Shown: piece by piece, positions 32,627 to 64,000 of the stretch | Position numbering within the stretch: position 1 is the first letter of the stretch | Layout of the letters: the number at the start of each line of letters is the position of its first letter | Source of the DNA: Kaistia soli DSM 19436 | Lineage (GTDB): Bacteria > Pseudomonadota > Alphaproteobacteria > Rhizobiales > Kaistiaceae | Assembly (NCBI RefSeq): GCF_900129325.1 | Contig: NZ_FQUP01000002.1 | Coordinates: 450,668 to 514,667 of the forward strand | Direction: 5' to 3' | Length of the DNA stretch: 64,000 nt | Program-made: the position numbers and the translations under genes | The notes under the pieces: generated by a model | Seen by the model: the letters and a program-made list of their open reading frames with translations, nothing else | What the model was told of the DNA's origin: nothing | Databases searched by the model: none

Positions 32627-33832
32627 ATGGGCGACGCGGCGTTTCTCCTCGTTTTCAACTTTGCAATCGGACTGTCTTTTGCGGCGGCGTTTCTTGCGCT
32701 GACCTGGCGCTCCAAAGTCGCGCTCGGACGCTGGTGTGCCGCCGGCTTTGTCGCGGCGGCAACAACCGTCGCGGTCGAGGGCTTCGCGTCCGCGATTCCC
32801 TCGGCGCGCCTCGTCTCGGTTCTTTCCTTCTCCTCGCTTCTTCTGGGGATGACGCTGATCGTGGCGGGATTACTGCGCCACTATCGGCCGGGCGCTTCCA
32901 TTGCGTGGCTGATCATCCTCTTTCTTGCCGGTTCTTTGCTCAATGGTTTCTATCTTTTTGAGGTGCCGCGCGGCACGACGCTGAACGCCTTCGGCTATCA
33001 AGGGCCCTTCGCCCTGCTGACGCTCCTGGGCGCAATGATCGTGCTGGTCTGGTCGCCGCGCCGGCCTGCCGATCTCGCGCTTGCGGCGGTCCTCGGCCTC
33101 AGCGGGCTGCAGTTTCTTGCCAAGGCAGTGCTTGCGGCCGCGGCCGGCTCCGGACCCGGCGTACGGGACTATCTTGCCAGCACCTACGCCCAATATTCGC
33201 AGACGGCCGGCGGTATCCTTTCGCTGCTGCTTGGTCTCGCTCTGGTCGGCGTCGTCGCCGTTGAAGTCATGGCCGAGGCGGCTCGCCGGCTCGAACGTGA
33301 CAGCCTTTCCGGAGCGCTCAATCGCGGCGCTTTCCTGCAGCAGGCCGATCAGGTCCTGAGGCGGACACCGCAGGGCATATGTTCCAGCCTGATCATGGTC
33401 GATCTCGATCATTTCAAATCGATCAATGATCGCTTCGGGCATGCCGCCGGTGATGACGTCATCCGCGCTTGCGGCACGTCGCTTGTCCAACTGGCCGGAA
33501 CGGACGGGCTGTGCGGACGCGTCGGCGGGGAGGAGTTCTGCATCCTGCTCACCGATTGCAACATCGCGGCGGCCCGCATCTATGTCGATGCCATCCGCTC
33601 GCTGATCGGCATGACGCGGTTCCCGATGCTACCGGAGGGGTATCGCGTCACAGCGAGCTTCGGCATCGCGGTGACGGATCGCCTGGAGCCGCTCGCCGAT
33701 GCGATGCATCGTGCCGACCTCGCGCTCTATGAGGCCAAGGCGGCCGGTCGCGATGGCTATCGCTTCGCCCCGCTGTCGCCGGCTGGAACCGCCGATTTCG
33801 AGCGGCCCGCTGCAGCGTTCGGGGATGGATAA
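32627..33832 (+). CDS. Membrane diguanylate cyclase (GGDEF)
   Basis: 401 residues. The N-terminal 210 residues hold six or so membrane segments with no recognised sensor domain; the GGDEF domain is about 220-385. Active-site GGEEF at 300-304 (RVGGEEFCILL), with DLDHFKSINDRFGH at 259-272 for nucleotide and metal binding and DSLSGALNRGAF at 225-236. These make it a likely active c-di-GMP synthase. The inhibitory RxxD site expected five residues before GGEEF is absent (GTDG region), so product feedback is probably lost. No EAL domain. It converges with the patatin gene, 34 bases apart. A TTGACA at 32557-32562 may be its -35 but the -10 is poor. Confidence 0.92.
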   Translation: MGDAAFLLVFNFAIGLSFAAAFLALTWRSKVALGRWCAAGFVAAATTVAVEGFASAIPSARLVSVLSFSSLLLGMTLIVAGLLRHYRPGASIAWLIILFLAGSLLNGFYLFEVPRGTTLNAFGYQGPFALLTLLGAMIVLVWSPRRPADLALAAVLGLSGLQFLAKAVLAAAAGSGPGVRDYLASTYAQYSQTAGGILSLLLGLALVGVVAVEVMAEAARRLERDSLSGALNRGAFLQQADQVLRRTPQGICSSLIMVDLDHFKSINDRFGHAAGDDVIRACGTSLVQLAGTDGLCGRVGGEEFCILLTDCNIAAARIYVDAIRSLIGMTRFPMLPEGYRVTASFGIAVTDRLEPLADAMHRADLALYEAKAAGRDGYRFAPLSPAGTADFERPAAAFGDG

Positions 33833-33866: not shown

Positions 33867-35603
33867 CTATGCACCGGGCTTGTCGCGGACAAAGCTGAGA
33901 ATGTCCTTGCGCAGCTTCCGCCTGGCGAAAGGCCAGAGCAGGCCGAACCCGGTACTCCATGCTGATGCCATCATTCCGCCTGACGGCTTAAGGGTCTTGT
34001 AAAGATAGTCGAGCCGCGCCTCGATCTGCACGCCGAGCTGCTTCCGGCGTGCCTCCGACAATCGCAGCGGTGCCATCTGGACCGGCTTTTTCGGCTGGTT
34101 GTTCTCATCGCGTAATGACGCCATCAGCGGGATCATCGGCACGAAGCCGGCTTCGGCAGGGTCTGCCGTTTTCGAGACATAGATGCCGGAAGTGTGGGTT
34201 GCGATCTGGCTGGGGGTCCATTCCTCGCTCAGCAACGGGTTCGCCGGATCGAAGCGGAAGTTGAGCGTCAGGAACTGAAAGGCATTGTAGCGCCCGAGCA
34301 GGAAGTCATGCTTGAGCAGCGCGGTATCGAGAAAGCCGCCGAAGGCATGCAGACCGCCGGAGGCCAGTGAGGATTCGCCACCCGCGCCTTCGGGACCTGG
34401 CGCGATCAGGAAGCGGCTGAACACCTTGCTGTTGACCGCTGAGAGGATGTCCTCGGCGCGGTAGCGCGATTGATTGAGGAAGATCGAGAGGATCAGCCCT
34501 GCCAGTCCGGGAAGCGTCGCAGGACGATCCGGCATCTTGTTCGACGCGACGAAGGGATCGACGAGGATGAGTGCGCGTGTCGCCTTGTCTGACTCGCGAT
34601 CGTTGACACCGGCGAGCCCGGCGAGCTCCGTATGCGTGAGACCGATCGGCTCGTTGTTGGTCAGGCCGCCATCGACCATCGGTGCTGATGGATTGCGCGT
34701 CAGCCAGGGATCGATGAGGTCCCAACGCGGTGTCATCGGGAGACGAGGGTCGCCGCCGGGCTGGGAAACCAGGGCAACGCGGGCGGCGATCTCGGGCGGC
34801 GACCGCAAGACGTCGCGGCTGCTGAACACCAGTGGAAAGGCGCAGGTGGCGAGCGCGGCGGCCTTGAGCCGGTCCCAATTGGTTCCCGACACGCTCGAAA
34901 GCGCCATTTCCCCGATCCGTGGCCCTTCCCCGGGCGCAGCGTCGCCGCCGTCGACATGCAGGGCGAAACGCGCGGTGTCGTCATGCCGCCAGAAATCGAA
35001 TCCGATATTGGGGCCGGCGGTGAAGCCGACGCGATAGGGCGTTCCAATCAGGTTGCTCATCGTCACGACGAGGCGGAGCGGATCGGCGAGATATCCGCGT
35101 TGCGGCGGCGTCGCGCCATCGGGCGAGGAGGGCAGGGGCTTGCCCTCGAACCCGATCAGCGACTGGATAGCCCTCTCGATGGCCGCGGTGTCGACCAGCG
35201 ACGTTACGCCAGGAGAACGAGCGCTCGCACCCGAGAGGAGCTTGTCGATCGTGACGGAGTTCGGGCCGACCCAGGCATCGTAGAACGGGTTGCCCTCCTG
35301 TGCGCCGCGCGGAAAGTCCGAGCCTGCCGCCCGAAGGAAGATGGCGCCGTTCAGCGCGCCGCCCGAAGCGCCCACCAGCGTGCTGAGCGTCACTCTGTGC
35401 GTCGGCGCCTCGGGATCGCCGCGAAGCTTCGCAGCCTCCCAGGCATCCAGCGCTTCCATGATGTAGTCGAGGACGCCCGCGGTATAGGCGCCGGCGGAAA
35501 CCGTCCCCGCAAGGGCGAAGCCGATTTCGAACGTGCCCGGTCGTTCGGCGCGGACCAGCGGGAAGGTGGTGTCGAGCTCTTCCTGGGTCAGTTCATGGGA
35601 CAT
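33867..35603 (-). CDS. Patatin-like phospholipase
   Basis: 578 residues. Patatin serine hydrolase with the Ser-Asp dyad: oxyanion region ALAGTVSAGAYTAGVLDY (about 31-47), nucleophile elbow VGASGGALNGA (S80) and acid loop PMVDGGLTNNEP (D311). The following 260 residues are outside the core and I do not recognise them. No signal peptide or membrane segment is visible, so a lipase acting at the inner face or exported by a non-Sec route is possible. It is third of a three-gene leftward unit: 9 bases after the membrane-protein gene and downstream of a PG-binding/lysozyme-like protein gene. Confidence 0.88.
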   Translation of the reverse strand: MSHELTQEELDTTFPLVRAERPGTFEIGFALAGTVSAGAYTAGVLDYIMEALDAWEAAKLRGDPEAPTHRVTLSTLVGASGGALNGAIFLRAAGSDFPRGAQEGNPFYDAWVGPNSVTIDKLLSGASARSPGVTSLVDTAAIERAIQSLIGFEGKPLPSSPDGATPPQRGYLADPLRLVVTMSNLIGTPYRVGFTAGPNIGFDFWRHDDTARFALHVDGGDAAPGEGPRIGEMALSSVSGTNWDRLKAAALATCAFPLVFSSRDVLRSPPEIAARVALVSQPGGDPRLPMTPRWDLIDPWLTRNPSAPMVDGGLTNNEPIGLTHTELAGLAGVNDRESDKATRALILVDPFVASNKMPDRPATLPGLAGLILSIFLNQSRYRAEDILSAVNSKVFSRFLIAPGPEGAGGESSLASGGLHAFGGFLDTALLKHDFLLGRYNAFQFLTLNFRFDPANPLLSEEWTPSQIATHTSGIYVSKTADPAEAGFVPMIPLMASLRDENNQPKKPVQMAPLRLSEARRKQLGVQIEARLDYLYKTLKPSGGMMASAWSTGFGLLWPFARRKLRKDILSFVRDKPGA

Positions 35604-35612
35604 CGCCGTCTC

Positions 35613-36608
35613 CTAGCCCTCGGCCGTCTTGGTGCCTTCGCCACCGGTCGGCGGCTTCGGCCCGGACGAGCGCAGATTGATGAAGCGATTAAGCAGATCG
35701 AACCAGAACGGCGCCCCGAACGAGACGGCTATGGCCGTCAGGATCCAGCCGACAAGCGCCGAAAGTGGGCTTAATTTGCCGGCAAAGAGGTTCTGTGGCG
35801 TCACAGACCGTCCATCGCAAGCGGCGCCGCAGTCGTCCCAACCGACGGGCAGCGGTGTCGATTGAAGTGTCGCGATTTCGTCCAGCGCCTTCTTCCTTAG
35901 GGCCGAGATCTCCTCGGCCGGATCCGCAACGGTGGCCGCCGTTTCGCCACCGGAAGTCGGAGTCGCTGCGTCTGCGTGCGAGGTCGCGAAGGCGGTCGCC
36001 GCGCGGACAGTGGCCTCGAGCCGGGTCGTGTCGTGCATCAGCACATTGACGATGCGAACGGTATCGACATTGAGCAGCGCGGCCAGGACGAAGCCGATGG
36101 CGAGCAGCGTCGCCTGGGCATTGCGCTTATAGGCGCCGCCGAGCCGGTCCATCGCGTCGTCGAACCAGTGGTCGACCGAGAGCTTGAAGGCAGCCATGTC
36201 GCCACCCGCTTCGTCCAGGAGGGTGCCGAGCGCCTGCCGGACGGGCCCGTCCGGCATTTTCGCGATGGTTTCCTGCATCGCGGTGAGGCTGGTCGCCTGA
36301 TTGTTGCCGATCAGCGTATCGAGGAGAGCCAGCGTGAAATTGCGAGAGGGAACATAAGCCGGCCGTCGGGTTTCGGATGTCCCGGCAATCAGCGCATGGC
36401 CATAGACGAGGCGCGCCAGCTCGCTGTGCAGAGCGCCGTTCGGGCCGTTGCCGGCGCCCACCAAGGCCTCGATCGAGGATTTGAGGCCCTTGGCACGGGA
36501 TTTCAGTACCGCCACGATCAGCTCGTTGACGGTCGAGGCAGCGGAACTGAGAAGCAGATAGGCAAAGCTCAGCGAGATCGCGACGCCGAGCAAGGTCACA
36601 AGGCTCAT
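35613..36608 (-). CDS. Uncharacterised membrane protein in the patatin unit
   Basis: 331 residues, no family recognised. Layout: an N-terminal membrane segment (about 3-24), a mostly helical 140-residue soluble part ending in the notable SVDHWFDDAMDRLGGAYKRN (144-163), a membrane hairpin start (166-190, ATLLAIGFVLAALLNVDTV), an Ala/Thr-rich linker with two Cys (C260, C264), a membrane segment (282-300) and the ending GAPFWFDLLNRFINLRSSGP. The WFDDxMDRLGGxYKRN and FGAPFWFDLLNRFxNLR pieces look like conserved motifs that I have met in uncharacterised bacterial membrane proteins. It lies between patatin and lysozyme-like genes with gaps of 9 and 52 bases. Confidence 0.8.
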   Translation of the reverse strand: MSLVTLLGVAISLSFAYLLLSSAASTVNELIVAVLKSRAKGLKSSIEALVGAGNGPNGALHSELARLVYGHALIAGTSETRRPAYVPSRNFTLALLDTLIGNNQATSLTAMQETIAKMPDGPVRQALGTLLDEAGGDMAAFKLSVDHWFDDAMDRLGGAYKRNAQATLLAIGFVLAALLNVDTVRIVNVLMHDTTRLEATVRAATAFATSHADAATPTSGGETAATVADPAEEISALRKKALDEIATLQSTPLPVGWDDCGAACDGRSVTPQNLFAGKLSPLSALVGWILTAIAVSFGAPFWFDLLNRFINLRSSGPKPPTGGEGTKTAEG

Positions 36609-36660
36609 GGCCCCTCCTTGAATCAGTCACGTTCCGCAGCCGTCCGGGGGCTGCTGCCCG

Positions 36661-37683
36661 TCATGCGTCCACGAGCAGGTTTCTGAGGATGCGCACCTGA
36701 TAGTGGAAGGAGTTGATGCCGCTGCCGTTGTAGCGACGCGCCGCATAAGGCCAGTCGCATCCGAAATCGGAACGATCCGGGATGCGGCCATAATTGGCGC
36801 TGCTGTAGTAGGCGGTCGGCCGATAGGTCTGGCTAGAACCTGGGTAGAGCGGGACGCCGGGCTCGATCGCCACCTTGCGGGCGGCCCGCGCGCAGGCGCC
36901 ACAATCGGTCATGTAGCGGTGGTCGGACGATGAATAGCGGCAAAGGCGCAGCCGAAGGCGTGGATTCTCTGCGATCCGGTCGTCGGCGGTGTCGTCCGGC
37001 CCCACCACGAACCGGTTGAACTTCACCCTGAACTCTTCGATTGCGCTGGAGATATTGGTTGCGGGATCGCCGACCAGCGACGCGATCTCGGCTGGCGTCG
37101 CCGGGTGGTGGAACAAGGTGTACTGGCCGATGCCATAGCCGCGCGAGGTGATCCGGTCGGGATGGGCGGTGTCATTGCGATCGAGGCCCATGACGAGGAA
37201 AGTGTCGCGTCCGCCCGGCGCCGGCACATTGAAGTGCCTGCGGCCACTTTCCTGTTGCATCATCGCCAGCAGGAACGGCATCGGCACGCCGACGCCGGCG
37301 ATTCCCTGCAGCAGCGCGATGGCACGCGCATTCTCAGCAGCGGGATTCTCGGCGGACGGTATTTTCGGAAAGGCCGGGTCGGCCATCATCGTCGTGATGA
37401 TCCGGGCGAGGCGATCATCGATGCTGCCATCGACGACGAACCGCTCGCCTTCGGCATAGTCGCGCACGGCAACCGGCGCGCGACCATCCCGGCCGCGCGA
37501 ACCGCCGTCATTTTCGTTGAGGTCGATCTTGAGCGCCCGGACAGCGCGGGCCGTGCCGTCGCCAAAAACGCCGTCGATGCCGCTTCCGAGATATCCGAGA
37601 GCGCGAAGAGCGACCTGCAGCTCAAGAACCGATTGCCGGAAGCCGTCTCTAGCCGTTCCCGTGATATTGGCCGGTGAAGTCAT
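36661..37683 (-). CDS. Peptidoglycan-binding, lysozyme-like protein
   Basis: 340 residues from the ATG at 37681-37683, chosen because GGGGGG is spaced nine bases before it; two nearer-upstream starts sit on or before that site. The N-terminal PG_binding_1 repeat is VLELQVALRALGYLGSGIDG followed by VFGDGTARAVRAL (19-51). The second half looks like a lysozyme/transglycosylase fold: candidate acid E145 in LAMMQQESG, SRGYGIGQYT (180-189), and a C-terminal AARRYNGSGINSFHYQVRIL helix. Four Cys (C248, C261, C264, C309) cluster in between. No signal peptide. First gene of the three-gene unit with the membrane protein and patatin. Confidence 0.75.
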   Translation of the reverse strand: MTSPANITGTARDGFRQSVLELQVALRALGYLGSGIDGVFGDGTARAVRALKIDLNENDGGSRGRDGRAPVAVRDYAEGERFVVDGSIDDRLARIITTMMADPAFPKIPSAENPAAENARAIALLQGIAGVGVPMPFLLAMMQQESGRRHFNVPAPGGRDTFLVMGLDRNDTAHPDRITSRGYGIGQYTLFHHPATPAEIASLVGDPATNISSAIEEFRVKFNRFVVGPDDTADDRIAENPRLRLRLCRYSSSDHRYMTDCGACARAARKVAIEPGVPLYPGSSQTYRPTAYYSSANYGRIPDRSDFGCDWPYAARRYNGSGINSFHYQVRILRNLLVDA

Positions 37684-52094: not shown

Positions 52095-53382
52095 GATCGC
52101 CTCCTGTCGCGAGCGAGGCGAGCGGCAGCGCCAGCGTCACGCACGCGCCGCCATCCGCGCCGTTCTCGGCTGACACGGTGCCGCCGAGCTTGCGGATAAC
52201 ATTCACCACCAGGAAGAGGCCGAGGCCGCCGCCCGGCCGCCCCTTGCTGGAGCGGTACGGCTTTCCGAGCGTCTCCAGCATCGCAGGCTCGAAGCCGGGC
52301 CCGGCATCGGAGACGGCGATGACGATCGTGTCGGCCTGCCGTCCCGCGACGACGCCGATCCATCCGGGCGATGCCTCCAGTGCGTTGTCGAGAATGTTGA
52401 AGATCACCTGCTTCAGGGCCGTGTCGGAAATGATGGCCGCGTCTGGCTCGATCAAACTCGAATAGTCGATCACCGCCGGCGAGCGCGTCTCGCGCCATTC
52501 GCTGACCGTGTCGTCCAGGAAACGCGTCGCCGTGGTGCGGATCGTACCCTCGCCACGCGCATCGCCCGACGAGATCAGGATGCCCGAGACGATCGCCTTG
52601 CAGCGATCGAGTTGCGATTGCATCTCGGCGATTTCGCCCGCGATCTCGGGGTCCGCGCCAAGCTGCGGCATCCGCTGCCAGTCGCTGAGGATCACCGAGA
52701 GCGTCGAAAGCGGCGTCCCGAGCTCATGCGCCGCACCTGACGCGAGCAGGCCCATGCGCACGATGTGATCCTCCTCTACCGAGCGTTGCCTGAGCTCGGC
52801 GAGCCGGGCATCGCGTGCCTTCAGATTGTGCTGGATGCGGGTCACGAAGAACACCAGCAGCGTTGCGGCCAGCACATAGCAGATGAACATGCCCTGGATA
52901 TGGAGGCCGAGCAGCTCGCCACTATGGGCCTGTGGCATGTCGAGGGCGCGGAAGCTGAAGGTCAGGAACAGGAAGCACCCGGATGTGACGAGCACCAGCA
53001 TCCAGGCCGACCACGCATCGACGAGCACGGCGCCGAGGATCACCTGCAGGAGATAAAGTGACACGAAGGGGTTCGAGGCGCCGCCGCTCAGATAGAGCTG
53101 CAGCGTGAGCGCGCTGACATCCAGCATCAGCTCAAGGAAGAGCTCGGAATTGGAGATCGCCTGTCGTCGCATCTGACGCAACAGGCTGACGATATTGAGC
53201 AGCACCAGAAAGCCGAGCACGGCAGCCATCTCGGCCAGCGGCAAGGCGATCGCCAGCACGAAATGCACATAGACGATGGTCAGTATCTGGCCGATGACCG
53301 CGAGCCAGCGGAGCTGGACCAGCAGAAGCAGGTTCTTCTTGTTGGTGAGGTCGCGGCGGTCGGTAATCTCGCTTGTCTGAAT
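52084..53382 (-). CDS. regB: Sensor histidine kinase of the RegB/ActS/PrrB family
   Basis: Redox-sensing membrane kinase, about 432 residues. Six membrane helices; the quinone-binding motif GGASNPF (SGGASNPFVSLYLLQVIL) is present, the H-box is GAAHELGTPLSTL, and a Cys 42 residues after the His (QLDRCKAIVSGIL) matches the RegB redox box. N, G1 and G2 boxes are visible (NILDNALEAS, DAGPGFEP, GGGLGLFL). The first conventional start, GTG 53266-53268, deletes LRWLAVIGQ, a family hallmark of helix 1, which is encoded just upstream. The frame stays open there with ATT 53380-53382 as candidate start, or a one-base shift from ATG 53393-53395 (see findings). Confidence 0.9.
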   Translation of the reverse strand: MQTSEITDRRDLTNKKNLLLLVQLRWLAVIGQILTIVYVHFVLAIALPLAEMAAVLGFLVLLNIVSLLRQMRRQAISNSELFLELMLDVSALTLQLYLSGGASNPFVSLYLLQVILGAVLVDAWSAWMLVLVTSGCFLFLTFSFRALDMPQAHSGELLGLHIQGMFICYVLAATLLVFFVTRIQHNLKARDARLAELRQRSVEEDHIVRMGLLASGAAHELGTPLSTLSVILSDWQRMPQLGADPEIAGEIAEMQSQLDRCKAIVSGILISSGDARGEGTIRTTATRFLDDTVSEWRETRSPAVIDYSSLIEPDAAIISDTALKQVIFNILDNALEASPGWIGVVAGRQADTIVIAVSDAGPGFEPAMLETLGKPYRSSKGRPGGGLGLFLVVNVIRKLGGTVSAENGADGGACVTLALPLASLATGGDPGH

Positions 53383-53596
53383 GACCCTGCTCCATGCTCC
53401 GGTCGCCCCGAAGATGATGCGGACCAGACCGCCGGCAAGCCGTCCGACCGATCAATTCGCCGAGGGGTTCGAAACGTTGACCGGGGAAGTCGCCATAGCG
53501 GCGCCCCATGTCAAGAGCGAGGCGGACGGCGGGCGGAAGGCGCAGTCGCGGTCGATCCCCTATCTCGGCCTCCGTTTCACGGCGCTGATGGATCGC

Positions 53597-54799
53597 TCAG
53601 TCGCCCTCAGGACGCCGTTCTCCGGTGCGTGTTCCAAGCAGGACCAAGGGGACCGCAGCGAGATTGACCGCGGCGACCAGAAGCCAGATGGCGCCAGGCC
53701 AGGAGGACTGAACGGCGACGTAGAAGGTCGAAAAGCCAAGCGGTGCGACAATCGAGGCAAGGCTGACGATCGAGGCGAGAACGCCCTGGAACTGGCCCTG
53801 CCTGCCCTCCTCGACGCGGCGCGTGGCGAGGGCTTGCAGCGCGGGAACGCCGATGCCGCCCAGCGCGAAGAACGGCATCACCGCGAAGACGACCCAACTC
53901 CGGCTGGCGAAGGCCATAATGAGGAGTGCAGTTGCAGAGCAGCAGATCCCGAGGAGAACGGCGCCGCGTTCGCCGAGCCGCCGCGCTGCCGGCCCGGGCA
54001 GGAACGCCTGAACCAGCGTCTGGCAGATCCCGAAGGCGCCGAGCGAGAGGCCGATCCAGACACCATTCCACGCAAACGTGTCGCTGCCCCAAAGCGCCCA
54101 GCAGATTCCATAGGCCTCTCCACCGCCCGCCAGGACGAAGAAGACGAGGATGATGGGCAGAAGGGTCTTCATCGAAAGGAGCCAGCGCAAGGGGGAAAGA
54201 GGATTGAGCGTGGCGATCGAAAGTGTCTGTCGGGTCGGGACACGCGATTCCGGCAAAATCACCAGGGCAAGCAGGAAGTTGCCGGCCGTCAGCACGGCAG
54301 CCGCGATGAAGGGAAGCCGCAGCCCGATGTCGCCGAGCAATCCGCCCAGAACCGGCCCGATGATGAAGCCCGCGCCGAAAGTCGCGTTGAGCAGGCCGAA
54401 GCGTCGGGCGCGTTGGTCGCTGGTGGAGACGTCGGTGAGATAGGCCGAGGCGACGGAGACATTGGCGCTGGTAAGGCCGGCGATGGCGCGACCGAGAACG
54501 ATCATCCAAAGCTGCGGCGCCACCGCCATGACAAGATAATTGATCGCGGCGCCGCCCAGCGAAATGAGCAGCACTGGCCGGCGTCCAAGCGTATCGCTCA
54601 ACGAACCGAGCACCGGGGCGAAGACGAATTGCATGGTCGCATACAGCGCGGCGAGGATCCCGATAAAGGGCGCGACGTCGGCAGTGTGGGTCACGTCGAC
54701 CAGCAGCCGCGGCAGGATCGGAAAGATCAGGCCGATCCCGATCGCATCGAGACAGACAGCGGCGAAGATCACGACGAGAGACCGGTTCATGGCGACCAT
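53597..54799 (-). CDS. MFS efflux protein, TetA(class A-like) family
   Basis: 400 residues, 12 membrane segments. Motif A of drug:H+ antiporters is GSLSDTLGRRPVLLISLGGA and motif C-like GAGFIIGPVLGGLLGDIG; start VVIFAAVCLDAIGIGLIFPI resembles TetA/TCR members. Expression is probably controlled by the divergent TetR-family gene at 55037. Tetracycline is only one possible substrate. It lies 214 bases upstream of regB on the same strand but is separated enough to be its own unit. Start ATG 54797-54799; another ATG three codons later is possible. Confidence 0.9.
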   Translation of the reverse strand: MVAMNRSLVVIFAAVCLDAIGIGLIFPILPRLLVDVTHTADVAPFIGILAALYATMQFVFAPVLGSLSDTLGRRPVLLISLGGAAINYLVMAVAPQLWMIVLGRAIAGLTSANVSVASAYLTDVSTSDQRARRFGLLNATFGAGFIIGPVLGGLLGDIGLRLPFIAAAVLTAGNFLLALVILPESRVPTRQTLSIATLNPLSPLRWLLSMKTLLPIILVFFVLAGGGEAYGICWALWGSDTFAWNGVWIGLSLGAFGICQTLVQAFLPGPAARRLGERGAVLLGICCSATALLIMAFASRSWVVFAVMPFFALGGIGVPALQALATRRVEEGRQGQFQGVLASIVSLASIVAPLGFSTFYVAVQSSWPGAIWLLVAAVNLAAVPLVLLGTRTGERRPEGD

Positions 54800-54933
54800 C
54801 AGCTGTTCGCGAGGAGCGGCGCAGGCGCGACGGGCCCACAGTCACCGATCTCGCCCTGCGGCCACCCCGCTAGATCACCCCAGTTCACGATCCGCTCATC
54901 CCTCATCGCATGCTCCCGCTAACCGAACTCATA

Positions 54934-57043: not shown

Positions 57044-57988
57044 TCAGGGCCGCACTCGCACGAAGCGCTGTTCCAGCACCTCGCTGCCCCAGCGGCTGCC
57101 GCGCCGCTCCTCGGCAAGCACGAAGCCGTTCTGCTCATAGAGATGCCGCGCCGCATGAAGGCCGCCGAACGTCCAGAGATTCGTTTCGGCAAAATCGTGG
57201 ACGTCTGCGAAGCCGAGCGCGGTTGCGAGTAGCCGCCGCCCGACGCCCCCACCGCGGACCGTATCGTCGACGATGAACCAGCGCAGATGGGCGACGCTGG
57301 GTTCCGCAACATCTGCCTCGATGGCGATCGAGCCGATCATGCGATCATCCTGAATGGCGGCCCAGACGTCGTTCCCCGGCGCATCGAGCTGGTCGCAGAA
57401 TGCGGCGAGGCCTCCGGCGACCATGCTTTCGAAGCGTCGGCCAAAGCCGGCGGTGCGCGCATAATAGAGCGCGTGCATTTCGGTGATGCGGGCGACGAGG
57501 CCCGGGCGATAGCCGGCGACGATTTCGGTCGCTGCTGCCGCGCGCGGAGTCACGGGCGCTGCTGCAAGAGCATCGGCGTAAAGACTGAGACCGTTAAGGA
57601 CGGTCGGGTGGTGTTTCGAGGGTAGCCGTTCCAGCGCGCTTGCGACCTGCTTACGCGCAAAGGCATGGATTTCGGCAACGCGCGCGCGTCCGGCGGCGCT
57701 GAGCGTCAGCTTCTTGCTGCGCGCATCCCCTTCGTCCGGCGTCTCCTCGATGTCGCCGGATATGACGAGCTTGCGCAGCATCCGGCTGATGCTCGACTTC
57801 TCGAGGCGAAGAAGCCCGCCGAGCTCGCGCGCCGAGATCCCGTCTCGGGCGTCGATCTCGATCAGCGCGTGGACAGCCGATGGTGGCAGGTCGGTTCCGG
57901 CGAAAGGACCGCCCATGAAGCCGAGTTCGCGGACGAGCTGCCGCGAGGCGGCGCGGATGTGATCAACGGCGATCTGCGATACAGGCAT
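57044..57988 (-). CDS. MarR-GNAT fusion regulator/acetyltransferase
   Basis: 314 residues from ATG 57986-57988 (start MPVSQIAVDHIRAASRQLVR); longer readings cross the operator. MarR winged helix (about 1-140): PSAVHALIEIDARDGISARE, LGGLLRLEKSSISRMLRKLV, DEGDARSKKLTLSAAGR. C-terminal GNAT (about 165-310) with acetyl-CoA loop RGGGVGRRLLATALGFA and AARHLYEQNGFVLAEERRG. The fusion is known in actinobacteria and rhizobia; the acetylated target is unknown. A MarR operator overlaps its likely promoter at 58008-58020. Confidence 0.88.
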   Translation of the reverse strand: MPVSQIAVDHIRAASRQLVRELGFMGGPFAGTDLPPSAVHALIEIDARDGISARELGGLLRLEKSSISRMLRKLVISGDIEETPDEGDARSKKLTLSAAGRARVAEIHAFARKQVASALERLPSKHHPTVLNGLSLYADALAAAPVTPRAAAATEIVAGYRPGLVARITEMHALYYARTAGFGRRFESMVAGGLAAFCDQLDAPGNDVWAAIQDDRMIGSIAIEADVAEPSVAHLRWFIVDDTVRGGGVGRRLLATALGFADVHDFAETNLWTFGGLHAARHLYEQNGFVLAEERRGSRWGSEVLEQRFVRVRP

Positions 57989-58007
57989 CGGTCGAACATC
58001 ATATTGG

Positions 58008-58020
58008 TTGCATAATACAA
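58008..58020. promoter_or_regulatory. MarR operator of the fusion gene
   Basis: TTGTATTATGCAA on the minus strand, an imperfect palindrome (one mismatch) with TTG and CAA ends, the usual MarR half-sites. It lies 20 bases upstream of the start codon in an AT-richer segment, well placed to block the promoter. Confidence 0.5.
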
Positions 58021-58154
58021 CGAAATTGACGCTCTGCGTTACCGGGGTCAAGTGGCGCCTGCCGATCGATGGACTTTCTCTCGGGCGCGGTGAGCGGAAG
58101 CCGGTACTGCCGTCTCGCCTAGGCTGAAATGGTCAGACGCCGCTGATCCGATTG

Positions 58155-58730
58155 CTACGCCCGGCGGAAAGAGATCACGAATATCTCCAGCCTATTGGCG
58201 GGCAACACATGAATGGGCGTTCTATCCCCATCGGTCAGAAGGCAATCGAAAGTCCGCGCTTCCCAACGCTGGTCGCCTGTAACGAGCCGGGCCGGACCTC
58301 CGAGAAAAATCGCCCCGTCGTCTCCCTCCGGCGCCAGCGTGCATTGGTCCTTGATCATCACGCGCGTCAGCGAGTGCCGCCACGCTGGTCGCCGGGTCAT
58401 GACATTGAGGTCGACGGTTTCTCCATCGAGACAGTCGGCATGGATTTCGTCTTCGCCGGCGAAGGCGAACGGGTCTGCGCCCGGCCGCAGCACCGCCCCG
58501 CGCCCGTCGGCGAAGGTGAGCCTTATTCCACCGCCGGCTAGGCAGGACAGACTTCGGTCGACGCCCGCGAAGCGGGAGAACGGTCCGGAGACCGAAACGG
58601 TCGCGAGGCTGATGCGCCACAGGAACGCACCGGCGCTGCTTCCTTCCGGGAAGACGGCAATCTCCTGTGTCGTGCCGCCGCCATTCTTCCAGGGCATGGC
58701 GCGATAGGTCTCGAAGCGCAGCAATCGCAT
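58155..58730 (-). CDS. hutD: HutD-family protein
   Basis: 191 residues from ATG 58728-58730, four bases after the hutU stop region. HutD (DUF886), a cupin-like protein attached to hut operons; proposed to moderate expression or sense formiminoglutamate, but no enzymatic role is settled. Marks: YRAMPWKNGGGTTQEIAVFP near the start, and SLATVSVSGPFSRFAGVDRS. Last gene of the hut cluster in this window. Confidence 0.9.
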   Translation of the reverse strand: MRLLRFETYRAMPWKNGGGTTQEIAVFPEGSSAGAFLWRISLATVSVSGPFSRFAGVDRSLSCLAGGGIRLTFADGRGAVLRPGADPFAFAGEDEIHADCLDGETVDLNVMTRRPAWRHSLTRVMIKDQCTLAPEGDDGAIFLGGPARLVTGDQRWEARTFDCLLTDGDRTPIHVLPANRLEIFVISFRRA

Positions 58731-58734
58731 GGCG

Positions 58735-60408
58735 TCAGTTGCCGAGAATAGCCGGGAGTCGGAGGCCCTGCTCGCGGGCGCAATCGAGCGCGATGTCATA
58801 GCCGGCGTCGGCATGGCGCATCACGCCGGTGGCTGGATCGTTCCACAGCACACGTTCGATGCGCCGCGCCGCGTCGTCCGTGCCGTCGCAGCAGATCACC
58901 ATGCCGGAATGCTGCGAGAAGCCCATGCCGACACCGCCGCCGTGATGCAGCGACACCCAGGTCGCGCCGGATGCGCAATTCAGAAGCGCGTTCAGCAGCG
59001 GCCAGTCGGAAACGGCGTCCGAACCGTCCTTCATCGCCTCGGTCTCGCGATTAGGGGAGGCGACGGAGCCGGAATCGAGATGATCGCGGCCGATCACGAT
59101 GGGAGCCTTCAGCTCGCCGTTCCGCACCATCTCGTTGAAGGCAAGGCCGAGGCGATGGCGATCGCCGAGGCCGACCCAGCAGATGCGAGCCGGCAGTCCC
59201 TGGAAGGCAATGCGCTCACGGGCCATGTCGAGCCAGTTATGCAGGTGCGTGTTGTCGGGAAGCAGTTCCTTGACCTTGGCGTCGGTCCTGTAGATGTCCT
59301 CCGGATCACCCGAAAGCGCGGCCCAGCGGAACGGCCCGATGCCGCGGCAGAAGAGTGGGCGGATATAGGCGGGCACGAAGCCGGGGAACGCGAAGGCGCG
59401 CTCCAGGCCCTCATCCTTGGCGACCTGGCGGATATTGTTGCCATAGTCGAGCGTCGGGACACCGGCATCCCAGAAAGCCAGCATGGCTTCGACATGAGCG
59501 CGCATGGAGGCTCGTGCCGCCGCTTCGACGGCTTTGGGATCCGTCTCGCGCCGCGCCTTCCATTCGGAGAGTGTCCAACCCTTGGGCAGGTAGCCGTTGA
59601 TCGGATCATGCGCCGAGGTCTGGTCGGTGACGATGTCGGGACGGATGCCGCGCCTTACCATCTCGGGCAGGATTTCCGCGGCATTGCCGAGAAGGCCGAC
59701 CGACTTTGCCTCGCCGGCCGCCGTCCAGCGATGGATCATCGCCATCGCCTCGTCCAGCGTCTCGGCCTTTTCGTCGAGATAGCGGGTGCGGAGGCGGAAA
59801 TCGATCGAATCGGGATTGCACTCGACGGCGAGGCAGCAGGCACCGGCCATCACGGCGGCGAGCGGCTGCGCGGCGCCCATGCCGCCAAGCCCGCCGGTCA
59901 GGATCCACTTGCCCTTGAGATTGCCGCCATAGTGCCGACGCCCGGCCTCGACGAAGGTCTCATAGGTGCCCTGAACGATGCCCTGCGAGCCGATATAGAT
60001 CCACGAGCCGGCCGTCATCTGGCCGTACATCGCGAGCCCCTTTTTATCGAGCTCGTTGAAATGATCCCAGGTCGCCCAGTGGGGCACGAGGTTGGAGTTG
60101 GCGATCAGGACGCGGGGGGCATCTTTGTGCGTCCTGAAGATGCCGACCGGCTTGCCGGACTGGACCAGAAGCGTCTCGTCCTCCTCGAGATCTCTCAGGC
60201 TCGCGACGATGCTGTCGAAATCGGCCCATGTGCGTGCGGCCCGGCCGATGCCGCCATAGACCACAAGCTCGTGCGGGTTCTCGGCCACCTCCGGATCGAG
60301 ATTGTTCATCAGCATGCGAAGCGGCGCTTCCGTCATCCAGCTCTTCGCGCTGAGCGCGGTGCCGCGGGACGCCCTGATGTCGCGGATGTTGTGACGAGGA
60401 TTGGTCAT
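58735..60408 (-). CDS. hutU: Urocanate hydratase
   Basis: 557 residues, full length. Converts urocanate to imidazolone propionate with tightly bound NAD+. Marks: ATVQASRGT-type opening [20 protein letters not shown], the NAD loop [40 protein letters not shown], and [20 protein letters not shown] near the C-terminus. Lies between hutG and hutD. Confidence 0.97.
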
Positions 60409-60416
60409 GCTTTCCC

Positions 60417-61217
60417 CTAGGGTCTGGCGGCGAGCGCGATCGCTTCGATGCGCTGCAGGATGTCACGGAGATGCGGGCGCAGGCGCGCGGCCTTGGCCGT
60501 GTCATAGCCGAAGGGCGTCGCCTCGCTTGCGAGGTGGGTCGACTGGGCGAGTTCCATCTGGATCGCATGAACGCCCTCAAGCGGGCGCCCATAATGACGC
60601 GTCGTCCATCCGCCTTTGAAGCGGCCGTTGACGACATGCGTATAGCCCGCTGCGCTGGCGACGACGCTTGCCGCCGCGGCCTCAATCGCCGGGGTGCAGC
60701 TGGTGCCCGCATTGGTACCGATGTTGAAGTCCGGCAGCGTCCCCTCGAAGAGGAACGGGATCACCGACCGGATCGAATGGCAGTCATAGAGTACCGCGAC
60801 GCCGTGCAGCGCCTTGACCCGCGCGATCTCGGCGGCGAGCGCCGCATGATACGGAATGTGGAACAATGCCGTTCGCGCGGCGATCGCGTCGGCGCCGGGC
60901 GCCTCGCCATCGTTCCAGATCGGCTGGCCGTCGAAATCCGTGATCGGCACCAGCCCGGTCGTGTTCTGACCCGGATAGAGACTGCCGCCCGCCGGATCGC
61001 GATTGGCGTCGATGACATAGCGGTGGAAAGTCGCGCGCACCATGGTGGCGCCGTCCAGCAGCCCGTCATAGAGCCGCTCGATATGCCAGTCGGTGTCGGC
61101 AAGGCACCGGCCATTGTCGTTCAGCCGCGACCAGATCTCACGAGGCACGTCGGTGCCGGTATGCGGAAGGCCAAGAATGACGGGCGACGTCCCGCGCGCG
61201 ATGTCGACAACGCTCAT
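60417..61217 (-). CDS. hutG: N-formylglutamate deformylase
   Basis: 266 residues. Hydrolyses N-formylglutamate to glutamate and formate, the five-step route. Marks: [31 protein letters not shown] (metal His), [39 protein letters not shown] and [17 protein letters not shown]. Together with hutI and hutU this indicates the five-enzyme pathway through formiminoglutamate deiminase (hutF), which should be outside the window. Confidence 0.96.
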
Positions 61218-61218
61218 A

Positions 61219-62754
61219 TCAGCCCTCGAGACCCGGCAGGATGCCGGCGTTGATCGAGGCTGAGAGCGCGCCGCTCGCCACCAGCTGACCCGCGGCCGCG
61301 AGATCGTCCGCCATGTAGCGGTCTTCCTCCAGCGCCGGCACGACGGCGCGGATCGCGTGAATCGCCCTGGCCAGTTCCGGGCTGGTGGTCAGTGGGGCGC
61401 GGAAGTCGATCCCCTGCGCCGCCGTCAGGGCTTCGATGCCGATGATCGCGAAGAGGTTCTCGGTCATGGCGAGCAGCCGGCGGGCGCCATGGCAGGCCAT
61501 CGAGACATGGTCTTCCTGATTGGCCGAAGTCGGCGTCGAATCGACCGAGGCCGGATGCGTCATCTGCTTGTTTTCGCTCATCAACGCCGCCGACGTCACT
61601 TCGGCGATCATCAGGCCGGAATTGAGCCCGGGCTTTCGGGCGAGGAAGGCGGGAAGGCCGAAGGAGAGCGCCGGATCGACGAGCAATGCGATGCGGCGCT
61701 GCGCGATCGCTCCGATCTCCGAAACCGCGATGGCGAGCTGGTCCGCGGCAAAAGCCACCGGCTCCGCGTGGAAATTGCCGCCCGAGACGACGGAATAGTC
61801 GGAGAGAACGAGCGGATTGTCGGTGACGGCATTGGCCTCGATTTCGAGCGTCCGTGCCGCCATGCGCAGAAGATCGAGACAGGCGCCGTCCACCTGCGGC
61901 TGGCAGCGGATGCAATAAGGGTCCTGGACGCGCTCGTCGCCTTCCCTGTGGCTCTCACGGATGGGCGAGCCTTCGAGGAGGCCACGCAAGGCGGTTCCCG
62001 CATCGATCTGGCCCTTATGGCCGCGCAGCGCATGGATGTCGGGATGGAAGGGCGCAGACGACCCCATGGCGGCATCGGTGGAAAGCGCCCCGGTGATCAG
62101 TGCTGCCTGTGCGGCCCTGTGGGCGCGGAAGAGGCCGGCCAGCGCCAGCGCCGTCGATGTCTGGGTGCCGTTGATGAGCGCGAGCCCTTCCTTGGCGGCG
62201 AACTCGATCGGCTTCAACCCCGCGCGCTCCAGCGCGGCGGCGCCGCTCATGCGCTCGCCGCCGAGGAAGGCCTCGCCCTGGCCCATCATGACGGCGGCCA
62301 TATGCGCCAGCGGCGCGAGATCGCCGGACGCTCCGACCGAGCCTTTCTCGGGGATCAGCGGGACCACGCCGCTCTCCAGCATGTCCTCGATCAGCCTGAC
62401 AACCGCGAGCCGCACGCCCGAGGCGGCGCGGCCGAGCGAGATCAGCTTCAGCGACAGGATCAGGCGAACGATATTCTCCGGCAGCGGCGCGCCGACGCCG
62501 CAGCAATGCGACAGGATGAGGTTGCGCTGCAGCGTGGCGACATCGGCCGCATCGATCTTGATCGAGGCCAGTTTTCCAAAGCCGGTATTGATGCCGTAGA
62601 CAGGTTCGTTGCCGGCAGCGATCTCCGCGATGCGCGCAGCAGCCCGCTCGATGGCGGCATCGCATGACGGCTCGATCCGGACGGGCTCGCCGGTCCAGTA
62701 GATCATCTCCAGTTGCTGGAGCGTGACATGACCGGGTTTCAGAACGATGGTCAT
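61219..62754 (-). CDS. hutH: Histidine ammonia-lyase
   Basis: 511 residues from ATG 62752-62754, which overlaps the hutI stop as ATGA; an ATG five codons further up is possible. Deaminates histidine to urocanate. The Ala-Ser-Gly triad that forms the MIO cofactor is in [20 protein letters not shown]. Other marks: [20 protein letters not shown] and [15 protein letters not shown]. One base separates its stop from the hutG start. Confidence 0.97.
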
Positions 62755-63986
62755 CTTGGGATCCATTCCCCCTTGAAAATCCGTGCATGCAGCGGGTTAA
62801 AGCCGATGCGGTAGACAAGCTCCGCGAGGCTCTCGATGTCCCAAACGGCGAGGTCGGCCGACTGGCCAGAGACGATCGTTCCCGTGCGGGCGCCCAGCCC
62901 GAGGGCCCGTGCCGCTTCCGACGTGACGCCCGCGATGCATTCGTCGACCGTCAGCCCGAACAAGGTTGCCGACATGTTCATGGCCAACAGCAGCGAGGTC
63001 AGCGGCGAGGTGCCGGGGTTGCAGTCCGTCGCGATGGCGATCGGCACGCCGGCCTGGCGAAGCAGGTGGACCGGCGGCGTCTGCTTTTCATTCAGCGTGT
63101 AGAAGGAGCCGGGAAGGAGGACTGCCACCGTCCCCGACCTTGCCATGGCATCGACGCCGCCCTGATCCAGATATTCGAGATGGTCGGCGGAAAGTGCCTG
63201 ATAGGATGCCGCGAGCTCGGCGCCGCCCAGATTGGAAAGCTGCTCGGCGTGGAGCTTAACCGGAAGGCCAAGCGACCGCGCGCGGTCGAAGACGCGGGCG
63301 ATCTGCTGCGGCGAGAAGGCGATGCCTTCGCAGAAGCCATCGACGGCATCGACCAATCCCTCCGCATGGGCTTGGTCGAGCCCGGGCAGGACCACCTCGG
63401 AAATGTAGTCGTCGCTGCGGCCGGAATAGTCGGCCGGCGTGGCATGGGCCCCGAGATATGTCGTCACCACGCGGACGGGACGGATGCGTTCCAGCGCGCG
63501 GGCGGCGCGCAGCATGTCGCATTCAGCCTCGATCGAAAGGCCGTAGCCCGACTTGATCTCGATCGTAGAAACGCCTTCGGCGAGGAGATGATCAAGTCTT
63601 GGCAAAGCGGTCTCGACCAGCGCGTCGACGCTCATTGCGCGGGTGGCATTAACCGTTGAGACAATGCCGCCGCCCGACCGCGCGATCTCTTCATAGCTCG
63701 CGCCTGCAAGGCGCAATTCGAATTCTCGTGCGCGATTGCCGCCGAAGACGAGATGCGTGTGACAGTCGATCAGCGACGGCGTGACGAAGCGGCCGTCCAG
63801 CTTGACCGTGTCGGCGCCGCGCGCCATGTCCGCTGGCAGATCGCTTTCTTTGCCGGCGAACAGGATGGCCCCGCCTTCCGTCAGGATTGCTCCCCTCTCG
63901 ACAAGGGCAAGCCCAGAGGTGCCGGCACGTGCCGTGGCGTAGCGGAGGTCGCGATAGAGGTGTCGTCGCTTCACAGTCTCGGTCAC
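62751..63986 (-). CDS. hutI: Imidazolonepropionase
   Basis: 411 residues. Opens the imidazolone ring to formiminoglutamate. Metal sites: [20 protein letters not shown] (HxH), [15 protein letters not shown] and [25 protein letters not shown]. The start is GTG 63984-63986 with GGAG at 63997-64000. Bases 63983-64000 read in another frame end in TGA overlapping this GTG, so an upstream hut gene, probably hutF or a transporter, likely ends here. First hut gene visible. Confidence 0.96.
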
Positions 63987-64000
63987 GATGGATGAACTCC

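What the first reader, a model, noticed from the sequence alone, without database searches (positions are those of the whole stretch)
33867..37683. Three-gene unit: lysozyme-like PG-binding protein, novel membrane protein, patatin phospholipase
Seen: tightly spaced leftward genes (gaps 52 and 9 bases) encoding a PG_binding_1 plus lysozyme-fold protein without signal peptide, a 331-residue membrane protein of no family I know, and a 578-residue patatin lipase without signal peptide. Cell-wall- and lipid-degrading enzymes joined with a membrane protein suggest an envelope-attack, lysis or export unit. Known: patatins occur in several bacterial antagonism and defence systems. Inference: the three work together. 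This is the strongest candidate here for an undescribed system.
Basis: partly seen in the sequence, partly recalled or inferred. Interest (0 to 1): 0.6.

Follow-up and report, generated by a model that had tools for sequence, protein, structure and literature searches.

The report
Undescribed membrane protein with lytic partners
A three-gene bacterial unit pairs an undescribed membrane protein with a cell-wall-binding protein and a lipase, and distant relatives of that membrane protein often sit beside other wall- or lipid-cutting enzymes in unrelated bacteria, which suggests (untested) a module for opening the cell envelope.

Summary
PAT (33867-35603), MEM (35613-36608) and LYS (36661-37683) are leftward, 9 and 52 bases apart. 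PAT is a true patatin; LYS has a PG_binding_1 domain but an unproven catalytic domain; MEM is a helical membrane protein that met no Pfam, NCBIfam, PHROG or PADLOC family and no clear solved fold. The exact trio is rare: 2 of 397 genomes of the order. MEM itself spans many phyla. Genes next to MEM, compared with genes over 5 kb away, are richer in wall- or lipid-acting enzymes: amidases, M15 peptidases, patatins, Tle1-like lipases, PAP2; 3 of 8 newly found MEM genomes show it too. Many MEM genes nevertheless stand alone, and the partner labels are scattered on the MEM tree about as shuffles are, which fits repeated recruitment but does not exclude loose neighbourhood. In the sister genome the unit is far more diverged than nearly all neighbouring genes. 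Best reading: MEM brings leaderless envelope-degrading enzymes to, or lets them through, the membrane, like a lysis/release cassette built on an unrelated protein. Mechanism untested; confidence modest.

The parts
33867..35603 (-). PAT: 578-aa patatin-like phospholipase; GASGG (Ser80) and DGG (Asp311) conserved
   Evidence: Pfam Patatin 36.5 bits over cut-off; Ser80 and Asp311 invariant in 8 of 8 aligned sequences; 54% identical in G025
35613..36608 (-). MEM: 331-aa membrane protein with three hydrophobic stretches, of a widespread family without a name in the libraries searched; FGAPFWFD at 297-304 invariant in 52 rows
   Evidence: no match for the window protein in Pfam, NCBIfam, PADLOC, PHROGs; 210 relatives in genome contigs, best 80 kept; alignment; AlphaFold pLDDT 85.9, pTM 0.81, all helical
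36661..37683 (-). LYS: 340-aa protein with a PG_binding_1 domain and a putative lysozyme/transglycosylase-like domain (unproven)
   Evidence: PG_binding_1 30 bits; Muramidase E 0.34 below cut-off; weak PHROG endolysin matches over the PG-binding part; 72% identical in G025
32627..33832 (+). GGDEF gene convergent with the unit (flank); shares its raised divergence between sister genomes; present without the unit in G019 and G024

Best explanation
The unit is an accessory envelope-opening (lysis or release) module. MEM sits in the inner membrane and lets through, or brings to the envelope, enzymes made in the cytosol; LYS binds and probably cuts peptidoglycan; PAT hydrolyses membrane phospholipids. 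Together they would open the layers of the cell, either to release cytosolic cargo (the host carries an extracellular contractile injection system elsewhere) or as a suicide or antagonism response. Shown: gene order, domains, recurrence of wall- and lipid-acting genes next to MEM, divergence of the unit. Inferred: topology, the holin- or translocase-like role of MEM, enzyme activities, cargo release.
For: Loci were dereplicated to 53 (window and G025 left out). 124 proteins next to MEM gave PG_binding_1 6, Amidase_2 4, PAP2 4, S8 peptidase 3, Amidohydro_2 3, Patatin 3, Tle1-like lipase 2, M15_4 2; among 124 proteins over 5 kb away in the same loci none of these was among the families with two or more members (families with one member are mostly hidden). 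Cross-locus hits of 21 chosen partner enzymes: 13 of 124 near against 1 of 210 far genes, Fisher 1.6e-5 (biased, as the queries came from loci around MEM). New genomes: of 8 MEM genomes not seen before, one has an M15 peptidase ORF overlapping the MEM end, one a patatin 20 bases downstream, one a divergent GH46/PG-binding gene. Well-supported branches force at least 6 changes of the PG label and 5 of the lipase label. Of 33 proteins scanned, 26 show no 19-residue hydrophobic stretch starting in the first 58 residues; of the 7 that do, 5 are patatins (in those aligned it lies in the conserved loop), the others L005 PAP2 and the L092 amidase. The host has an eCIS but no VipB.
Against: 54 of 83 tree rows were labelled without partner, 27 of 33 in one large clade that includes Massilia, so MEM must also do something alone. 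The PG and lipase labels are not clustered on the tree beyond shuffles (71 and 500 of 500 shuffles as low), as expected if neighbours were loose. Taken one by one the near/far family differences are weak (p 0.015 to 0.31). MEM is 331 aa with 14 invariant columns, unlike short holins (recalled), and no relative was found in phages or viral contigs. eCIS co-occurrence in the order is 2 of 7 MEM genomes, sisters, and the eCIS is on another contig. PAT relatives occur without MEM: G283 and 4 of the 5 plasmid loci read (searched). LYS activity is unproven.
Confidence: 0.34

Rival explanations
1. PAT and LYS are antibacterial effectors delivered to other cells (by the eCIS or another machine) and MEM is a membrane adaptor for loading or delivery.
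For: Genes near MEM include Tle1-like lipases, patatins, amidases, M15 and S8 peptidases, a deaminase and an FRG protein, classes known among effectors (recalled in part). In L014 MEM follows a Pfam AAA ATPase, with similar genes in L049 and L050; eCIS_core is confirmed close to MEM in L050. 17 of 50 MEM genomes have eCIS_core against 19 of 397 in the window's order; taxa differ, so this is no matched control. The unit diverges strongly.
Against: Pfam found no eCIS_core in PAT, MEM or LYS; the eCIS is on another contig; 33 of 50 MEM genomes show no eCIS_core; no VipB in the host.
Confidence: 0.24
2. The enzymes serve ordinary envelope remodelling or lipid turnover and MEM is a general membrane protein; the genes are neighbours of convenience in a variable site.
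For: MEM is often solitary, with a shared chromosomal context in the Massilia loci; the trio is limited to 2 of 397 genomes; partner labels are scattered like shuffles.
Against: Near/far contrast and the new genomes; sporadic presence of MEM, 2 of 14 genomes of the genus and 7 of 397 of the order; carriage on 13 of 72,556 plasmid records; raised divergence.
Confidence: 0.23
3. MEM is an immunity or protection protein that guards the membrane or wall against the enzymes encoded beside it.
For: Membrane protein tightly next to envelope-acting enzymes; 1 of 52 MEM rows has a weak match to an immunity family (PoNi_C, E 0.0068), probably chance.
Against: One MEM family with the same invariant core goes with lipases, amidases, peptidases and haloperoxidases, whereas immunity proteins usually match one toxin (recalled); many MEM stand alone.
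Confidence: 0.14

Closest known systems
Type 10 secretion system / phage lysis cassette (holin, endolysin, spanin), e.g. Yersinia entomophaga (PMC10847048, abstract and passages seen)
   Same: membrane protein plus peptidoglycan-acting protein plus a third envelope-acting component, encoded outside phages
   Different: MEM is large and matched no PHROG or viral fold; a patatin where spanins would be; no lysis shown
Proposed patatin-based lytic cassette of phage WO (PMC9203015, passages seen)
   Same: patatin beside a membrane protein whose homologues elsewhere sit next to a GH108 lysozyme: a swap of lytic enzyme like that around MEM
   Different: WO's holin-like protein is under 150 aa with one membrane segment; MEM has 331 aa and three, and was not found in phages. 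The WO cassette is itself a proposal
T6SS lipase (Tle) and amidase/muramidase effectors
   Same: similar enzyme classes; Tle1-like domain in two MEM loci
   Different: no VipB sheath found in the host
eCIS-associated toxins (PMC8213781, passages seen)
   Same: one group of MEM loci lies near eCIS_core genes; the host has an eCIS
   Different: PAT and LYS lack eCIS_core and lie on another contig

Membership tests
Patatin-like phospholipase (PF01734) | Pfam score over cut-off; GxSxG serine and DG[GA] aspartate (motifs recalled) | tested here: met
   36.5 against 27.7 bits; Ser80 and Asp311 invariant in 8 of 8
Peptidoglycan hydrolase / lysozyme (LYS) | recognisable catalytic domain | tested here: inconclusive
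   Muramidase E 0.34, 11.6 of 22.3 bits; NCBIfam and the best PDB matches cover the PG-binding part; model failed; ESG/GIGQ motifs are my reading
Phage lysis cassette / T10SS | small holin-type membrane protein | tested here: not met
   331 aa; no PHROG match; no relatives in phages or viral contigs
Phage lysis cassette / T10SS | endolysin in the same operon | tested here: inconclusive
   LYS has no early hydrophobic stretch, but catalysis is unproven
Phage lysis cassette / T10SS | spanins; induced lysis | not tested
   no spanin search was made; lysis needs an experiment
T6SS effector module | host encodes a T6SS sheath (VipB) | tested here: not met
   PF05943 not found in G000; among 14 control genomes it rings in E. 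coli. Only this one T6SS family was sought
eCIS-associated toxin | eCIS_core in or beside the toxin, in the eCIS locus | tested here: not met
   none in the unit; eCIS_core genes on contig C7, unit on C5
Anti-phage defence phospholipase (PADLOC) | clear profile match | tested here: not met
   PAT best 11.9 bits, E 0.024; MEM and LYS none; 0 of 52 MEM rows

The most novel reading that the evidence does not exclude
MEM founds an undescribed class of inner-membrane proteins that let leaderless wall- and lipid-degrading enzymes leave the cytosol: a modular bacterial lysis/release system, unrelated to holins, in which the lytic enzyme is swapped from lineage to lineage.
Probability: 0.24. Interest if true: 0.85.

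Novelty: new variant of a known kind. Interest (0 to 1): 0.56.

Why it matters
It would give a function hypothesis for a conserved but unnamed membrane protein family found in many phyla, and a testable answer to how leaderless wall and lipid enzymes could reach their targets outside phages.

Tried and rejected
Phage origin: no MEM or LYS relatives in 50,697 phage records or in viral contigs by pattern scan; PAT was not searched there, except in PHROGs (none). Known fold for MEM: Foldseek best E 0.38 (PDB) and 0.31 (viral); VIA-align best Z 5.0, 5.9 A over 149 residues of a transporter, too low to tell for a helical protein; absence is not proof. LYS structure: single-sequence model failed. 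Domain fusions: four long MEM ORFs showed no Pfam domain. A Pfam scan of 52 MEM rows gave nine families, at most 2 rows each, best E 0.00087 (Clp_N), taken as chance. Single families near against far: with one or no member assumed in the far set, p 0.015-0.06 for PG_binding_1, 0.06-0.18 for Amidase_2 and PAP2, 0.12-0.31 for S8 and Patatin. eCIS link: Fisher 0.04 in the order, 0.07 in the genus, the two carriers being sisters. PAT with MEM in the order: p 0.0008, again resting on the two sisters. Promoter scan: no site, expected 0.5, uninformative. Papers: seven searches listed nothing that I recognised as describing MEM or this pairing; they cover open-licence PMC papers only. The Lipocone paper PMC12419801 (passages seen) mentions a 3-TM protein with two conserved cysteines in operons with peptidoglycan-binding proteins and a VanY peptidase; MEM has no invariant cysteine, but the two were not compared directly.

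Limits: gene calls around MEM used my own simple caller, which misses and miscalls genes; it missed the annotated patatin of L090, which I put back by hand before the near set was made. Rows labelled 'none' in the tree may hide partners: L022 and L068 have a PG-binding gene on the other strand, L181 a divergent GH46 gene. From the tree I dropped up to 17 near-identical Massilia and Paraburkholderia rows and the duplicates or fragments L003, L059, L088, L103, L107. The far list shows 25 of 202 families; far genes come from 38 loci. L180 ends inside MEM, so its downstream side was not seen. For dN/dS I first chose 25 genes by hand; one search repeats it for all 55 window ORFs called.
Full report
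WHAT IS THERE. Three leftward genes are confirmed: PAT 33867-35603, MEM 35613-36608, LYS 36661-37683. PAT is a patatin by Pfam (36.5 bits) with serine and aspartate conserved in 8 of 8 aligned sequences. LYS has a PG_binding_1 domain; the rest is only suggestive of a lysozyme-like enzyme: the Muramidase match is below cut-off, NCBIfam, PHROG and the best PDB matches cover the PG-binding part, and the model failed. MEM has three hydrophobic stretches, a confident all-helical model (pLDDT 85.9, pTM 0.81) and no named family or clear fold (scattered weak Pfam matches of other rows). Fourteen columns are invariant over 52 diverse rows, including FGAPFWFD at 297-304.

THE TRIO IS RARE, MEM IS NOT. 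MEM was found in 2 of 28 genomes of the family, 7 of 397 of the order, 10 of 299 of the phylum, 13 of 72,556 plasmid records and 210 places of the genome collection over many phyla (best 80 kept). PAT was found in 4 of 397 genomes of the order: G000, G025, G283 (residues 23-448) and a fragment in G359. LYS over its length in 2 of 397; 15 more match mainly over the PG-binding part. All three occur together only in the window's genome G000 and in G025 of the same genus. The MEM relatives nearest by path outside the genus are in Bacteroidota and Actinomycetota, which suggests acquisition from afar, though many forks are weak. The order is probably Hyphomicrobiales: the MEM row of G060 ('same order') is identical to that of Methylopila turkensis; this is inference.

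MEM AND ENVELOPE ENZYMES. Beside MEM relatives lie: patatin (L030, L063; L090; L182), Tle1-like lipase (L039; L066, about 2 kb downstream), a phosphoesterase-family (phospholipase-C-like) gene and DNase II (L031), phage-type lysozyme about 1.8 kb upstream and PAP2 (L005), amidases (L021, L040; L092, L093 by annotation), M15 peptidases (L064, L072, L085; L176), a cell-wall hydrolase (L095), S8 peptidases (L049; L092) and vanadium haloperoxidases (L091, L096, two related MEM rows). On the Rhizobium NXC14 plasmid the same PAT family (E 1.4e-47) is 11 bases from MEM, with an M15/SH3 gene (GH19 match below cut-off) divergently upstream: a similar set of functions with other sequences.

CONTROLS. 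124 near and 124 far proteins from 53 dereplicated loci (window and G025 excluded) were scanned. Near: PG_binding_1 6, Amidase_2 4, PAP2 4, AAA_22 4, S8 3, Amidohydro_2 3, Patatin 3, PG_binding_3 3, Tle1-like 2, M15_4 2 and others. Far: the families with two or more members were transporters, AAA, SDR, TPR, eCIS_core (3) and the like, none of the wall or lipid families. Without hits inside a locus, 13 of 124 near and 1 of 210 far genes resembled any of 21 partner enzymes; the queries came from loci around MEM, which biases this, and single families alone are weak. Fresh genomes are the cleaner test: of 8 new MEM genomes two had a same-strand lytic partner touching or following MEM and one a divergent GH46/PG-binding gene; five showed none, one of them cut off at the contig end.

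TREE. On a tree of 83 MEM rows the PG label needs 11 changes for 13 rows and lipase 7 for 7; well-supported branches force at least 6 and 5 (quick method, 36 of 79 inner branches weak). Shuffled labels need 12.3 and 6.8 on average, so these labels are hardly more clustered than chance. This fits repeated recruitment of partners, but also loose neighbourhood. 54 rows carry no partner label. A complete account must explain solitary MEM.

EVOLUTION OF THE UNIT. The window and contig C6 of G025 are largely syntenic: of 55 window ORFs called, 48 match; 7 do not, six of them in the last 7 kb. By dN, PAT (0.42) and MEM (0.33) rank first and second of the 48, LYS sixth (0.24; 0.21 from its ATG). Between them come the GGDEF gene next door (0.28), a 48-codon match to a nudix ORF, and an ORF at 53381-54919 that looks like a spurious reading frame. 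The 21 other genes chosen by hand have dN 0.01-0.07 and 86-98% identity. dS is near 1 in the unit and the GGDEF gene against 0.23-0.80 in those 21. Raised dS as well as dN points to replacement of the block by a diverged allele, perhaps with diversifying change; the two cannot be told apart here. G019 and G024 have the GGDEF gene without the unit in the 5 kb downstream and without it elsewhere.

DELIVERY. The host has two eCIS_core proteins amid ORFs that I recognise as sheath-, tube- and baseplate-like (by eye), and no VipB. eCIS_core is in 4 of 14 genomes of the genus, 19 of 397 of the order and 17 of 50 MEM genomes, an unmatched comparison; of the 7 MEM genomes of the order only G000 and G025 have it. 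Release of such particles by lysis is possible but not shown.

CONCLUSION. What recurs is MEM with exchangeable envelope-degrading enzymes.

Noticed in passing
L145/L146 (own genome, contig C7, about 314-336 kb); L147/L148 (G025): An eCIS-like locus with two eCIS_core proteins in the window's genome and a different-looking one with one eCIS_core protein in its sister.
   Followed up: partly
window 32627-33832: GGDEF gene beside the unit shares its raised divergence between sister genomes, as if exchanged in one block.
   Followed up: partly
L098 (NGR234 plasmid), L099 (Calothrix plasmid): PAT-family patatins without MEM sit with catalase, peroxidases or GMC oxidoreductase; a CHAP/PG-binding protein lies 2 kb from the Calothrix one.
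   Followed up: no
L091, L096 plasmid loci: MEM relatives downstream of vanadium haloperoxidase-like proteins without an early hydrophobic stretch.
   Followed up: no
L014, L049, L050: MEM between AAA-like ATPase genes and SH3-like/S8 peptidase genes; eCIS_core near it in L050 by Pfam.
   Followed up: partly
L009, L019, L021, L033, L042: MEM relatives in Bacteroidota directly followed by genes of one cluster, an amidohydrolase by Pfam in L009.
   Followed up: no
window 57047-63998: Six ORFs at the right end have no match on contig C6 of the sister genome.
   Followed up: no
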